The notes under the pieces: model-generated
What the model was told of the DNA's origin: nothing
Database searches by the model: none
Seen by the model: the letters and a program-made list of their open reading frames with translations, nothing else
From: a virus
DNA: 64,000 nucleotides
IMG/VR virus record: IMGVR_UViG_3300032240_002285
Coordinates: 1 to 64,000 of that record
Strand: one strand, 5' to 3'
Position numbers and translations under genes: made by a program
In this document: positions 22,963 to 60,851 of the stretch, piece after piece
Numbering within the stretch: position 1 is the stretch's first letter
Layout: every line of letters starts with the position of its first letter

Positions 22963-24015
22963 ATGGAAAACACATTACAAGAAAAAGTTAAACAATCAAT
23001 TCAAATTCTTAGAGATAAGAAGGCAAGAATTTATTTTCTTGTCCAAGACACAAAAGGGAATGCAAAGGCATCTATAAAGTTAATTTATCAGATGGCAAAA
23101 ACTCTTTTAGATAACGGATTTAATCCAATCATTCTTCATGAAAAAGCAGATTACGCTGGAGTTGTCGCTTGGTTAGAAGAAGAATATATGGAAATTCCTC
23201 ACAAAGCCATTGAAGGGCAAAATTTAGAAATTTCTCCTGAAGATTTTATTGTTGTACCAGAGCTATTTGGTTATGTTATGGAACAAATTAAAAATTTACC
23301 TTGTGCTAAAATAGTATTGGCTCAAGCATATTCTCAAATTGTTGAGACATTACAACCAGGTCAAAATTGGGCTCAATATGGTTTTTTAAAATGTATTACA
23401 ACAAGTCCAATACAACAAGAATATATTGAAAAAGTAATGAGACAAACTACTTTTGATATTGTCAAACCTTTAGTCTCTTCAGAATTTTCACCTAAAACAT
23501 TACCTGCAATGCCAATCATTGGTGTTCATACAAGAGAACAATCAGACACTATCAACCTTATCAAAACATTCTATTTGAGATTTCCTCAATATAGATGGTT
23601 CACTTTTAGAGATTTGCGTGGTTTGTCTGAAAAAGAATTTGCCAATTCATTAAGAGAATGTTTTGTAAGCGTTTGGGTTGATGATAAAAGTGGGTTTGGT
23701 ACATTCCCATTAGAATCTATGGCTTCTAACGTACCTGTAATTGGTAAATTGCCAAACATTAAACCTGAGTGGATGAATGACGATAATGGTATATGGATTA
23801 CTGATGAAACATTATTATGTGATGTAATTGCGGATTTCATCCAAAATTGGTTAGAAGACAACATATCACCAGAACTTTATGACAGTATGAAACAAACTGT
23901 TGAAAACTATACGAATAAACAAGAATTTGAATCTAAAATCATTTCGTTATTTGAAAATTACTTAACCGTTAGAGCGGATTCATTTGAACAACAAATTTCT
24001 AAAACTGAAGAATAA
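22963..24015 (+). CDS. GT-B glycosyltransferase-like protein
   Basis: 350 residues. After a helical N-terminus, KARIYFLVQDTKGNAKASIK begins a Rossmann-like half; the second half has IIGVHTREQSDTINLIKTF and the donor-binding part SGFGTFPLESMASNVPVIGK, in which the conserved E of the GT4 E-x7-E motif region and G-x-P-V-I-G are seen. It probably transfers a sugar, although the N-terminal half is diverged. It lies in the second, shorter glycosyltransferase block after phoH. Confidence 0.85.
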   Translation: MENTLQEKVKQSIQILRDKKARIYFLVQDTKGNAKASIKLIYQMAKTLLDNGFNPIILHEKADYAGVVAWLEEEYMEIPHKAIEGQNLEISPEDFIVVPELFGYVMEQIKNLPCAKIVLAQAYSQIVETLQPGQNWAQYGFLKCITTSPIQQEYIEKVMRQTTFDIVKPLVSSEFSPKTLPAMPIIGVHTREQSDTINLIKTFYLRFPQYRWFTFRDLRGLSEKEFANSLRECFVSVWVDDKSGFGTFPLESMASNVPVIGKLPNIKPEWMNDDNGIWITDETLLCDVIADFIQNWLEDNISPELYDSMKQTVENYTNKQEFESKIISLFENYLTVRADSFEQQISKTEE

Positions 24016-49559: not shown

Positions 49560-49940
49560 TTACTTTAGTTTTCTTAATTGGTCTCTGATTTCAATAGACC
49601 TTTCAAAATTCTGTTCTTGTATTGATTGTTTTAATTCTTGTTCAAGTTTTTCAATTGTTTCTTGATTAGTTTCTAAATTTTTGATTTTATCTCTAAGAGA
49701 AACCGCTAATTCAAAATTTTCATTTTCAATTGCATTTTCAAGTTGTGATTTTAGTTTTTCAATACTGCCGTTTGAGTTAGTGTCTGAAGGTTTGTTACTC
49801 CAGTAGTGAGTTGTGATTTTAGTTGTTCCGTCAGGGGATGTTCTGGTTTGACTTTTCCATTCACCAGGAACATTAAATTGTTCAAACATTTCATCAAATA
49901 TTCTGAACATGTCATTGTAGTTTCTTCTGTTTCCAAACAT
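49560..49940 (-). CDS. UVR-repeat protein (McsA-like), divergent from clpC
   Basis: 126 residues. Two UVR motifs fill the second half: IEKLKSQLENAIENENFELA plus VSLRDKIKNLE (residues 60-90), and LEQELKQSIQEQNFERSIEI plus RDQLRKLK (residues 99-126). UVR motifs pair into helical hairpins that bind UvrA/UvrB or, in McsA and ClpC, act in Clp adaptor contacts. The N-terminal half (MFRIFDEMFEQFNVPGEW) is unlike McsA zinc fingers. Its divergent neighbour encodes a ClpC-like unfoldase with its own UVR segment, so an adaptor role is a reasonable inference. Confidence 0.82.
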   Translation of the reverse strand: MFGNRRNYNDMFRIFDEMFEQFNVPGEWKSQTRTSPDGTTKITTHYWSNKPSDTNSNGSIEKLKSQLENAIENENFELAVSLRDKIKNLETNQETIEKLEQELKQSIQEQNFERSIEIRDQLRKLK

Positions 49941-50151: not shown

Positions 50152-52167
50152 ATGAACGACTTAATGGACGACGACGACAAAATGATGAGCAAAAAGCAAA
50201 AAGCATCCACCGAAAGCAGTACACCTGTTTTGGACAACTTTAGCCGCGACTTAAATAAACTTGCAACTGAAGGTAAACTTGACCCTGTAATTGGTCGTGA
50301 AAAAGAAATTTTGAGAATCGCTCAAATCTTATCTCGTAGAAAGAAAAATAACCCTATCATCATCGGAGAACCTGGTTGTGGTAAAACCGCTCTGGTTGAA
50401 GGTTTGGCAATCAAAATTGTTAACGGGGAGTGTCCTCGTAATTTACTTGACAAACGAATTGTTAACTTAGACTTAACTTCAGTTGTTGCAGGTACAAAGT
50501 ACCGTGGACAATTTGAGGAGAGAATGAAAGTTATAATTGAAGAACTTCAAGCGAATCCTAACATAATTGTGTTTATTGATGAGATTCATACTTTGGTTGG
50601 CTCAGGTAACTCCTCAGGTTCTATGGATGGTTCAAACATCTTCAAACCAGCTTTATCTCGTGGAGAACTTCAATGTATTGGAGCAACTACATTAGATGAG
50701 TTCCGTAAGAACATTGAAAAGGATGGAGCGTTAGAACGTAGATTCCAAAAAGTAATTGTAGATGCATCTACAGTAGTGGAGACAATTCAAATTTTGAAAA
50801 ACGTTCGTGACAAGTATGAAGATTTTCACAAGGTATCTTATAGTGATGAGGTTATTGAAACTTGTGTAAAACTTGCTGACCGTTACATTACTGACCGTGA
50901 GTTTCCTGATAAAGCATTTGATATCTTGGATGAGGTTGGGGCTAGAATGCAGACTGAGTTAAAAGTTCCTGAGGCTATTGAAGAACTTAAACGTCAGGCA
51001 GCAGACATCAAGACTCAAAAATTAGATGTGGTTAAGAAACAAAACTACGAACAAGCAGCAGAACTTAGAGATAAGGAAAAGAAGTTGTTGATTAAACTTG
51101 AAACTGAGAAGGCTAAGTTTGAAGAAAGAATGTCTAAAGACAAACAAAAGATTACACTTGAGAGTGTTTATGATGTTGTGTCTAATATGACTAAGATTCC
51201 TGTCAACAAGATGAATGCGGATGACTCCAAAGCTCTAATGAACTTGGACAAAGAATTAATGGGTAAAGTAATTGGTCAAGACGCGGCTGTCGTTAAGATT
51301 GCTAAATCTATCAAACGTAATCGTCTTGGTATCAACAACCCTAATCGTCCTATCGGGTCATTTGTGTTCTTAGGTTCAACAGGTGTTGGTAAGACTCACT
51401 TAGCTAAGGAATTGGCGAAAGAAATGTTTGGTAGTGAAGACTCATTAATCCGTGTGGATATGTCAGAGTACCAAGAAAAACATACAGTATCCAAATTGGT
51501 CGGAGCGCCTCCAGGCTACGTTGGTTATGAAGAAGGCGGATTGTTGACTGAGAAAGTTAAGAACAAACCATATTCGGTTATCTTATTTGATGAGGTTGAA
51601 AAAGCACACAAAGACGTGTTCACAATCTTACTTCAAATTATGGATGACGGTCACGTAACAGATAGTTTAGGTAGAAAGATTAACTTCAAGAATACCTTAA
51701 TTATCCTAACTTCAAACTTAGGTGTTAAGAAGCTACAAGACTTTGGTACTGGTATCGGGTTTTCAAGCTCCACTTATGGTGAAGAAGAAATGAAGAAAGA
51801 AATCTTAATGAAAGAAATGAAAAATTTCTTCTCACCTGAATTTATCAACCGTATTGACGATACGATTGTATTCAACTCTTTAACAAACGACGATATTAAA
51901 AAAATCACCGAAATTGAACTTAAGAAGTTGGTTTCCCGTTTAGAAGAAATGAAATACAAAATCTCTTACGATGAGACTTTAGTTGATTACTTATCTAAAG
52001 TTGGTTATGATGAATTATACGGAGCACGACCATTGAAGAGAGCTATTCAAGACAAAGTTGAAGACTTGTTATCTGATGAAGTATTAACAGGTAAGATTGT
52101 TGAAGGTAAGACTTATGTCCTGAAAGTGGTTGACGAAAATGTAGTTATTCAGAAAAAAGGTAGGTAG
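50152..52167 (+). CDS. clpC: ClpC/ClpA-like AAA+ unfoldase lacking the N-domain
   Basis: 671 residues with both AAA+ modules: Walker A1 GEPGCGKT (72-79), Walker B1 IVFIDEI (139-145), a middle segment with a UVR motif (about 284-314), Walker A2 GSTGVGKT (408-415) and ILFDEVEKAHKD. The middle region is short, as in ClpC, not the long coiled coil of ClpB. A GIGF loop at 534-537 (IGF) corresponds to the ClpP-docking tripeptide, so it may feed the host ClpP protease. The usual N-terminal substrate-binding domain is replaced by a short Asp/Lys-rich tail. A terminator follows. Confidence 0.93.
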   Translation: MNDLMDDDDKMMSKKQKASTESSTPVLDNFSRDLNKLATEGKLDPVIGREKEILRIAQILSRRKKNNPIIIGEPGCGKTALVEGLAIKIVNGECPRNLLDKRIVNLDLTSVVAGTKYRGQFEERMKVIIEELQANPNIIVFIDEIHTLVGSGNSSGSMDGSNIFKPALSRGELQCIGATTLDEFRKNIEKDGALERRFQKVIVDASTVVETIQILKNVRDKYEDFHKVSYSDEVIETCVKLADRYITDREFPDKAFDILDEVGARMQTELKVPEAIEELKRQAADIKTQKLDVVKKQNYEQAAELRDKEKKLLIKLETEKAKFEERMSKDKQKITLESVYDVVSNMTKIPVNKMNADDSKALMNLDKELMGKVIGQDAAVVKIAKSIKRNRLGINNPNRPIGSFVFLGSTGVGKTHLAKELAKEMFGSEDSLIRVDMSEYQEKHTVSKLVGAPPGYVGYEEGGLLTEKVKNKPYSVILFDEVEKAHKDVFTILLQIMDDGHVTDSLGRKINFKNTLIILTSNLGVKKLQDFGTGIGFSSSTYGEEEMKKEILMKEMKNFFSPEFINRIDDTIVFNSLTNDDIKKITEIELKKLVSRLEEMKYKISYDETLVDYLSKVGYDELYGARPLKRAIQDKVEDLLSDEVLTGKIVEGKTYVLKVVDENVVIQKKGR

Positions 52168-52215: not shown

Positions 52216-52869
52216 ATGATAAATTTAATTCGTAAAATTTTATTGGAAGAAACTAAAGATGAATCTAACTTTGATAGATTACTCAATAAATTCAAAAAAA
52301 ATTTCCCCGATGAATTAAAATCTAAGGCAGATGCCATCAAAAACTTTGTAGTTAATTACGTTAAAGAAAAAGGGTATACTATTAAATTTTTAAATTCTTG
52401 TAGTACAGGTTTTAGTGGTGTCAGAACAAAAAATCAAATTATTATTTGCTCACCAGCAAATATGCATACCATAGGTGATTTTCTTTACACTATTTTTCAT
52501 GAAATAAGACATGAACAACAACTAACTGAATTCAAAGAAAAAAATCCTTTAACAGATTATGATTTAGAGGATTTTGAAACTCTATACAAACAATATTGGG
52601 ATATGGAATTGGATGCTGATAAGTTTGGTAAAGAAATGATTGCAAAACTTGTAATGGCTTTAGATATACCATTAGATTTTGCAAAACAACAATTTAATTT
52701 GTCACTATACATAAAACAATACCCCTTTATGTCAGAAGTAATCAAGCGTAATATCAAAACAATTATTGAACAAATTAAAGAACTAAAAAATGCTGGAATA
52801 GAATTCACAGATATTCAAGACCATCCAATCGTAAAACGTCATTTGGATAAGTTAGAAAACTTTTTATAA
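52216..52869 (+). CDS. HEXXH zinc metalloprotease-like protein
   Basis: 217 residues. TIFHEIRHEQQL holds the zinc motif HEIRH (residues 95-99), and DMELDADKFGKEM downstream offers the third ligand (Glu131) with the ExxAD pattern of M48/M78-type gluzincins. No signal peptide or membrane segment is present, so it acts in the cytoplasm or inside the virion. The N-terminus LIRKILLEE could be a head-targeting peptide cleaved after LLE/LEE. The substrate is unknown. Confidence 0.85.
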   Translation: MINLIRKILLEETKDESNFDRLLNKFKKNFPDELKSKADAIKNFVVNYVKEKGYTIKFLNSCSTGFSGVRTKNQIIICSPANMHTIGDFLYTIFHEIRHEQQLTEFKEKNPLTDYDLEDFETLYKQYWDMELDADKFGKEMIAKLVMALDIPLDFAKQQFNLSLYIKQYPFMSEVIKRNIKTIIEQIKELKNAGIEFTDIQDHPIVKRHLDKLENFL

Positions 52870-58039: not shown

Positions 58040-58059
58040 AGTATTTATTCTTACATTTG
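58028..58059 (+). promoter_or_regulatory. Host-type promoter of the tmRNA gene
   Basis: TTTG (58028-58031), 20-nt spacer, TACATTTG (58052-58059): a full match to the Bacteroidota housekeeping consensus. The start of transcription would be near 58065-58068, leaving a 5' piece of about 15 nt to be removed by RNase P. The -33 element lies within the end of the preceding gene. Confidence 0.7.
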
Positions 58060-58082
58060 TGTTCACAAGTTCTTTAAAATAT

Positions 58083-58491
58083 GGGGATGGCCAGGCATTT
58101 GATTTCAGGTGTTAAGGGTAAGTTGCAAGTAGTCAGATTTTATCTATGACTTAAATCTATGGTAAAGAAGAATAACAGGCAATACATTTGCAAAATTAGC
58201 AGCTTTAGGTTTAACTAAAGAAGCTGGTGTTACAGTAGCTTAATAGTGAACTAACAGACGAGTCGGTGAGCATATAACTTGGGAACAGAAGCTCTTAAAG
58301 TGGATACTACTTAGTGTGTCAAAAGGTCTCGTTCAGAGGACTACCTTAATAAAAGTGAACTCGACACAGTTATTGGTAACAATGTCAAAATAGGAACCAA
58401 TTATTTTTCTATTGAGAACTAATAGAATAAACTTGTAGTAACTTGCTGTTAAGCAGGAAAGACCGCGGTTCGACTCCGCGCATCTCCACCA
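58083..58491 (+). ncRNA. ssrA: tmRNA with extended tag
   Basis: 409 nt. The tRNA-like ends pair: GGGGATG (58083-58089) with CATCTCC (58481-58487), including the G3-U70 wobble that alanyl-tRNA synthetase needs; the T-arm is CGCGG-TTCGACT-CCGCG, and ACCA is encoded at the 3' end. The tag frame begins with GGC at 58178 after AATAACA and reads GNTFAKLAA, then LGLTKEAGVTVA, before TAA TAG (58241-58246), so it is 21 residues long. tmRNA rescues ribosomes stalled on broken mRNA. Bacteroidota tags known to me (for example GENNYALAA) end at the LAA; here 12 residues follow it. Confidence 0.95.
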
Positions 58492-58497
58492 AATAAA

Positions 58498-58528
58498 AAA
58501 AGAATCTCTCTGAGGTTCTTTTTTTTTA
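58498..58528 (+). terminator. Intrinsic terminator of the tmRNA gene
   Basis: AGAATCTC, loop TCT, GAGGTTCT (one G-T pair), then nine T. It lies 9 nt after the tmRNA CCA end. Confidence 0.88.
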
Positions 58529-60341: not shown

Positions 60342-60851
60342 ATGAAAACTATATTTTTAGATATTGATGGTGTTTTGGCAACTGATAAACAATTCAATAG
60401 AAACCGTGAAAAATTCAAATCCAATTACGAATGGGCTGCAGAATATGACGTCCCTTATCCATACGATGAAGGTTGCGTTAAAATTTTGAATGAAATAGTA
60501 GAATCTACAGGTGCCCAAATTGTATTGAGTTCTGATTGGAAATTACACTATAATTTGGATACTATGGGTAAAATTTTTGAAGCCAATGGAATCAAAACAA
60601 AACCTATAGGAACAACAGAAGATTTTGGTTATAGTGGATTGTTATTGGAAATGTGGAGAGCATCTGAAATTGTAAGTTATATTGGCAAACATGATGTTGG
60701 ACAATGGGTTGTAATTGATGACCTTAATATGCAAAAATGGTTTGATGATTATGAAGGAGGAAAAGGTGATAGATTCTTTATAACTAGAAGTCGTGATGGT
60801 TTAAAAAAATCATCCCTCAAAGATAAAATCATCAATAAATTAAACGAATAG
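60342..60851 (+). CDS. HAD-superfamily phosphatase (SAK-type)
   Basis: 169 residues. IFLDIDGVLATD gives the nucleophile Asp and the acid/base Asp; QIVLSSDWKLHY is motif II; VVIDDLNMQKWF corresponds to the acidic motif IV. The pattern matches the HAD domains found in RNA-repair (Swiss Army Knife) proteins and T4-like phages. Possible roles are nucleotide or polynucleotide 3'-phosphate removal. It is cotranscribed with a second HAD protein 23 nt downstream. Confidence 0.85.
   Translation: MKTIFLDIDGVLATDKQFNRNREKFKSNYEWAAEYDVPYPYDEGCVKILNEIVESTGAQIVLSSDWKLHYNLDTMGKIFEANGIKTKPIGTTEDFGYSGLLLEMWRASEIVSYIGKHDVGQWVVIDDLNMQKWFDDYEGGKGDRFFITRSRDGLKKSSLKDKIINKLNE

What the first reader, a model, noticed from the sequence alone, without database searches (positions are those of the whole stretch)
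58083..58491. Phage tmRNA whose tag continues past a canonical-looking LAA end
Seen: a well-formed tmRNA with a 21-residue tag, GNTFAKLAA then LGLTKEAGVTVA, closed by tandem TAA TAG. Known: tags of Bacteroidota are short, begin with Gly and end LAA, and the C-terminal LAA is the degron read by ClpXP/ClpAP. Inference: the phage tag carries the usual end internally and adds 12 residues ending VTVA, which would hide the degron or redirect tagged proteins, perhaps to the phage ClpC. The phage could thus keep ribosome rescue but change the fate of tagged proteins.
Basis: partly seen in the sequence, partly recalled or inferred. Interest (0 to 1): 0.8.

Follow-up and report, generated by a model that had tools for sequence, protein, structure and literature searches.

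The report
Phage rescue RNA with long tag
Large phages that probably infect Bacteroidota carry their own ribosome-rescue RNA whose protein tag is more than twice as long as the host's, conserved, and nearly always encoded near a phage protein-unfolding machine, so these phages may tag and destroy failed proteins by a private route.

Summary
A complete tmRNA lies at 58083-58491, with a 21-residue tag (GNTFAKLAALGLTKEAGVTVA) closed by TAA TAG TGA. It is not an oddity of one phage. About 150 distinct related tmRNAs from metagenomic phages encode about 84 different tags, all 21-22 residues, with one frame open and under protein-level selection.

No match to the tag pattern was found in 84,980 bacterial and archaeal species. 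Bacteroidota tmRNAs, the likely hosts' kind, carry 9-10 residue tags ending LAA or MAA.

The 'hidden LAA' reading is only partly right. Codons 7-9 sit where host tags end, but LAA occurs in 6 of 80 tags. What is conserved is a Gly-Leu core and a new hydrophobic end, usually -Ala (VTVA, VAVA, VVAA). Nothing suggests a masked degron.

The tmRNA lies 2-5.6 kb downstream of a phage ClpC in 53 of 54 informative loci. That ClpC lacks the host's N-terminal domain but keeps the ClpP-docking IGF; the phage's own record also encodes ClpP. Best explanation: host SmpB and AlaRS run ordinary rescue, and the phage tag sends products to phage ClpC with phage or host ClpP. That last step is inference. It is a new variant of a known kind; other unrelated phages also have long tags.

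The parts
58083..58491 (+). one-piece tmRNA (ssrA) gene, CCA encoded
   Evidence: ARAGORN; RF00023 65.7 bits over the whole model
58178..58240 (+). tag reading frame, 21 codons, GNTFAKLAALGLTKEAGVTVA
   Evidence: frame shown by conservation and pN/pS; resume context
58241..58249 (+). tandem stops TAA TAG TGA
   Evidence: sequence
58083..58089 (+). acceptor stem 5' strand; G3 (58085) pairs with U (58485), the alanine identity pair
   Evidence: sequence; G3 and U kept in 85 of 85 phage copies with both ends readable
58481..58491 (+). acceptor stem 3' strand and CCA end
58052..58059 (+). promoter -7 box TACATTTG (Bacteroidota type TAnnTTTG)
   Evidence: the motif lies in the 60 bases upstream of 121 of 145 relatives
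58069..58082 (+). GTTCTTTAAAATAT leader, boxA-like, directly upstream of the RNA
   Evidence: similar leader in 81 of 95 relatives; function not tested
58501..58528 (+). terminator-like hairpin and T run
   Evidence: read from sequence
50152..52167 (+). phage ClpC (AAA+ double ring, 671 aa): D1 and D2 domains, IGF tripeptide at residue 535, no Clp_N domain
   Evidence: Pfam, motif, comparison with host, tree
49560..49940 (-). small protein with UVR motifs, divergent from clpC; candidate ClpC partner
   Evidence: Pfam UVR E 1.3e-16; kept upstream of clpC in 39 of the 80 clpC loci

Best explanation
This is a functional phage tmRNA belonging to a phage-specific family with a long tag. Shown: it keeps the tRNA-like end with the alanine identity pair, the resume context and a translated, selected 21-22 codon tag; it sits on its own promoter and terminator close to a phage clpC; the tag is unlike any tag found in the sampled Bacteroidota. 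Inferred: host AlaRS charges it, host SmpB (only one relative of 17 encodes its own) brings it to ribosomes stalled on broken mRNAs during infection, and the ribosome appends the phage tag. The tag's own new C-terminus (hydrophobic, nearly always -Ala) is the degron. Its natural reader is the phage ClpC, which has lost the N-terminal adaptor domain and so must take hold of substrates by its pore or through another partner, and which docks on phage ClpP where present or on host ClpP. The phage thus recovers ribosomes and routes failed proteins to a machine it controls. My sub-likelihoods: translated tag 0.97; ribosome rescue 0.9; tag read by phage ClpC 0.5; tag poorly read by host ClpXP 0.35.
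For: Complete tmRNA. Long frame open in 60 of 60 sequences, protein-level selection; Leu12 is encoded by TTA, CTT, TTG and CTA and Arg14 by AGA, CGT and CGC, so the residue is kept while the codon changes. 80 different tags read by program and 4 more by eye, all 21-22 residues. G3-U pair 85 of 85. tmRNA on the same strand 2.0-5.6 kb after clpC in 53 of 54 loci with enough sequence; clpC in 23 of 24 large relatives. Phage ClpC is one clade with 100% SH-aLRT support, lacks Clp_N that the host copy has and has the IGF tripeptide. ClpP in 11 of 17 records, own record included, with Ser, His and Asp of the triad in place. No Lon in 20 records. Host tags are 9-10 residues.
Against: No experiment. 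No direct evidence that ClpC reads the tag; clpC and tmRNA may be linked for other reasons, since they descend together. ClpP was not found in two long records (G020, 304 kb; G021, 272 kb), so the phage peptidase is not always needed or not always recognised. A hydrophobic end such as -VA or -AA may also be read by host ClpXP (from general knowledge the LVA variant of the E. coli tag is unstable). SmpB is absent from 16 of 17 records, so the system is not self-sufficient.
Confidence: 0.5

Rival explanations
1. The long tag is an ordinary degron read by host ClpXP. The phage simply carries a spare rescue RNA, and the extra residues are a spacer or drift after the old stop codon was lost.
For: The ends VTVA, VAVA, VVAA resemble known small hydrophobic degron ends. 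Codons 7-9 lie where host tags end and codon 7 is always Leu or Met. Other phages have long tags too: 22 residues ending VAA in a Wildcat mycobacteriophage, 24 and 36 in two giant phages.
Against: Length is fixed at 21-22 and the added part holds the most conserved residues (Gly11, Leu12), with pN/pS 0.51: not what drift gives. Near-constant linkage to a phage ClpC is left unexplained.
Confidence: 0.25
2. The tag is not a degron. It marks or stabilises rescued proteins, or delivers them elsewhere, and so spares them from host ClpXP.
For: The host-type end LAA is no longer terminal. A subgroup ends VVTI and one pair VTVS, without terminal Ala.
Against: Terminal Ala in 76 of 80 tags with hydrophobic neighbours; constant neighbourhood with an unfoldase; ClpP in most long records.
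Confidence: 0.13
3. The RNA mainly competes with host tmRNA or SmpB (a decoy), and its tag is of little importance.
For: A tRNA-like fragment from phage DS6A is reported to inhibit host tmRNA (PMC4131195, PMC11915505).
Against: A decoy needs no selected, fully open 21-codon frame with conserved stops and resume context.
Confidence: 0.05

Closest known systems
Bacteroidota host tmRNA (tag GENNYALAA)
   Same: One-piece tmRNA, same resume context, Gly first codon, tag starts at the same distance from the 5' end; Leu or Met at codon 7
   Different: Phage tag 21-22 residues against 9-10; different sequence and end; no match to the phage tag pattern in 84,980 species or 297 sampled genomes of the phylum
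Mesoplasma florum ssrA tag and Lon (Gur and Sauer 2008, described in PMC8138137)
   Same: A long, divergent tag that, in that case experimentally, is matched to a different protease
   Different: There a cellular lineage without ClpXP using Lon; here a phage, with ClpC and ClpP and no Lon. The match of tag and protease is not shown here
Phage tmRNAs already recorded (mycobacteriophages, Bacillus phage G, Melnitz; PMC4131195, PMC9004378; huge phages, PMC7162821)
   Same: tmRNA in a lytic phage; Wildcat-type EniyanLRS has a 22-residue tag AVDTDVDFAMWEAELASDLVAA
   Different: No sequence relation of the tag; phage G has 13 residues; no clpC linkage described in what I read
Jumbo-phage Clp components (PMC7824862)
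   Same: ClpP, ClpA, ClpX or ClpS encoded by some jumbo phages
   Different: Reported as patchy and without a tmRNA tag; here ClpC without N domain, mostly ClpP, and the tmRNA occur together

Membership tests
tmRNA (RF00023) | Match to the covariance model above the curated threshold, full length | tested here: met
   65.7 bits against 47, positions 1-374
tmRNA (RF00023) | tRNA-like domain with G3-U70 alanine identity pair and CCA | tested here: met
   sequence; 85 of 85 readable relatives keep G and U
tmRNA (RF00023) | Open tag frame from the resume codon to a stop, selected as protein | tested here: met
tmRNA (RF00023) | Helix 5 hairpin holding the end of the tag in a common register | tested here: inconclusive
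   the window's RNA folds a hairpin inside the frame, but no one register holds across the family
tmRNA (RF00023) | Charging with alanine and tagging of proteins in cells | not testable with these tools
   needs experiment
Host Bacteroidota proteolysis tag | 9-10 residues ending LAA or MAA | tested here: not met
   29 host tags against 21-22 residue phage tags
ClpC | Two AAA+ domains with ClpP-docking IGF | tested here: met
ClpC | Clp_N amino-terminal domain | tested here: not met
   absent in the window's protein and three relatives, present in the Flavobacterium copy; so ClpC-like core without N domain
ClpP | Catalytic Ser-His-Asp in a ClpP fold | tested here: met
   record 74017-74697, outside the window; Pfam and PDB sequence matches

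The most novel reading that the evidence does not exclude
A phage-private quality-control route: the phage supplies both a new degradation tag, by its own tmRNA, and the matched unfoldase and peptidase, so that proteins rescued during infection are destroyed by phage ClpC-ClpP and not by the host's ClpXP. Long tags in unrelated phages would be repeated inventions of the same solution.
Probability: 0.3. Interest if true: 0.82.

Novelty: new variant of a known kind. Interest (0 to 1): 0.6.

Why it matters
Phage tmRNAs are usually explained as spare copies that keep ribosomes free. A tag family that is phage-specific, fixed in length, selected as protein and encoded beside a trimmed ClpC suggests that phages also change the fate of the tagged proteins. 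It offers a natural tag and unfoldase pair that can be tested in vitro, and a possible orthogonal degradation tool.

Tried and rejected
Sequencing error or chance frame: rejected. Same tag in hosts: rejected; the pattern is not fully sensitive, as a slightly stricter version found 48 of the copies then held. Phage-genome records of INPHARED: no homologous tag or full-length tmRNA match. The annotated tmRNA of Maribacter phage Panino overlaps tRNAs and is probably a false call. A conserved hairpin inside the tag frame: alifold gave none and no common pairing register was found. A prohead-protease site in the tag (L-x-x-E-A, as near the MCP N-terminus): considered, dropped because the tags do not keep it. 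Tag motif in other proteins of the window: none at the motif searched; no PDB match of the tag profile. Link between ClpP presence and tag type: no pattern seen by eye. TAnnTTTG is not enriched over the whole window, so only its position upstream of the tmRNA is used. Literature: no paper found on long phage tmRNA tags; the library holds only open-licence papers. Two 'of' calls and several accession look-ups failed.

Full report
OBSERVATION. ARAGORN and Rfam RF00023 find a complete one-piece tmRNA at 58083-58491. The frame from GGC at 58178 reads GNTFAKLAALGLTKEAGVTVA and ends in TAA TAG TGA. The acceptor stem has the G-U pair of alanine tRNAs. A Bacteroidota-type -7 box lies at 58052 and a boxA-like leader at 58069-58082; a terminator-like hairpin follows. 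The window is part of a 99,745-base virus record with T4-like head genes and a prohead protease.

A FAMILY. Viral contigs found through the phage's ClpC, its major capsid protein and the tag hold 151 distinct homologous tmRNAs. A loose motif read 80 different tags, 67 of 21 residues and 13 of 22; six further readable copies, read by eye so that the motif did not select them, also have 21-residue tags, four of them new. In one of these Leu12 is Phe and in another Lys6 is Asn. Some copies were fetched by a tag-like pattern, which biases that subset; the ClpC-found subset is free of that bias and shows the same lengths. Records of about 300 kb carry it, so these are in part jumbo phages.

THE FRAME IS TRANSLATED. 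In 60 distinct tag sequences the frame has no internal stop; the other frames have stops in 58 and 56. pN/pS is 0.51 against 0.74 and 0.97, and variation is highest at third positions. Leu12 and Arg14 swap between codon families while keeping the residue. The pairs used for pN/pS are related, so the ratio is descriptive. Resume context and offset agree with hosts.

NOT A HOST FEATURE. All 40 Bacteroidota genomes tested have a tmRNA; 29 tags read are 9-10 residues ending LAA or MAA. The phage tag pattern gives no match in 84,980 species genomes nor in 297 genomes of the phylum, against at least 120 stretches of viral contigs. A host-like tag pattern gives 7 stretches among viral contigs. The host group is inferred from ClpC relatives and promoters, not from culture.

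WHAT BECAME OF LAA. Codons 7-9 lie exactly where host tags end, and codon 7 is Leu or Met throughout, as in hosts. This fits origin by loss of the old stop (inference). But LAA is present in 6 and MAA in 14 of 80 tags, so a hidden LAA is not what selection keeps. Kept are Gly1, Lys6, Gly11, Leu12, acidic or basic residues at 14-17, and a hydrophobic end, Ala in 76 of 80. One subgroup ends VVTI.

NEIGHBOURS. In 53 of 54 ClpC loci with at least 5.5 kb downstream, the tmRNA follows on the same strand at 1987-5646 bases. The phage ClpC is one clade apart from Bacteroidota ClpC (quick method, and one other phage sequence on a long branch makes the outer rooting unsafe). It lacks Clp_N and has IGF. 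A UVR-motif protein stands divergently upstream in 39 loci. ClpP is present in 11 of 17 records, in the phage's own record at 74017-74697, with the triad residues aligned to solved ClpP. SmpB occurs in one of 17; Lon in none of 20.

MECHANISM. Established knowledge of trans-translation says that a charged tmRNA with SmpB rescues ribosomes on non-stop mRNA. The features for this are present; SmpB must come from the host in nearly all cases. That the tag is read by the phage ClpC is inference from linkage, from the loss of the N domain and from the tag's new end. ClpP missing from two long records means that host ClpP may serve.

KNOWN KINDS. Phage tmRNAs are known (PMC4131195; PMC9004378; PMC7162821) and jumbo phages with Clp parts too (PMC7824862). 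A long tag matched to a different protease is known from Mesoplasma florum with Lon (PMC8138137). Long tags occur in unrelated phages: EniyanLRS 22 residues, LR756504 24 and LR756508 36 (frames read by eye from the RF00023 alignment, not tested by comparison), while phage G has 13. So the kind is known and the variant is new: a widespread, phage-specific, selected long tag tied to a trimmed ClpC. I found no paper that describes it, within an open-licence library.

Noticed in passing
window 49560-49940 (-): Small UVR-motif protein divergent from clpC, kept in 39 of 80 clpC loci; might be a ClpC activator in the manner of McsA.
   Followed up: partly
record of L016 (G003, 309 kb), 23555-23968 (-), locus L315: One long relative encodes its own SmpB as well as tmRNA, ClpC and ClpP.
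   Followed up: no
L437 1501-1947 and L438 1501-1857 (-): Giant phages LR756508 and LR756504 have unannotated tmRNAs whose likely tags are 36 and 24 residues long (ending PAAV and AVAA).
   Followed up: partly
L454 521-932: Gordonia phage GMA2 has an unannotated tmRNA (94.6 bits) with a long candidate tag frame ending ...NSEAAALV; the resume codon is not settled.
   Followed up: partly
L454 1242-1298: A Pistol ribozyme match (56.8 bits) inside the tRNA array of Gordonia phage GMA2.
   Followed up: no
window 58069-58082 and relatives: A boxA-like GTTCTTTGAAA leader directly 5' of the tmRNA in 81 of 95 relatives and in some host tmRNAs; perhaps antitermination or processing.
   Followed up: partly
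L163, L171, L168, L012, L024 upstream of the tmRNA: A subgroup lacks the TAnnTTTG box and has instead a conserved CAGGGGGCGAAAGTGATTT stretch before the leader; its nature is unknown.
   Followed up: no
L199 1939-2271: The annotated tmRNA of Maribacter phage Panino overlaps two tRNA genes and looks like a false call.
   Followed up: partly
window 60342-60851 (+): HAD-type RNA-repair domain (HAD_SAK_2) near the tmRNA and the tRNA genes.
   Followed up: no
window 52216-52869 (+): Protein with an HExxH motif just downstream of clpC, found in 24 of 80 clpC loci; possible metallopeptidase.
   Followed up: partly
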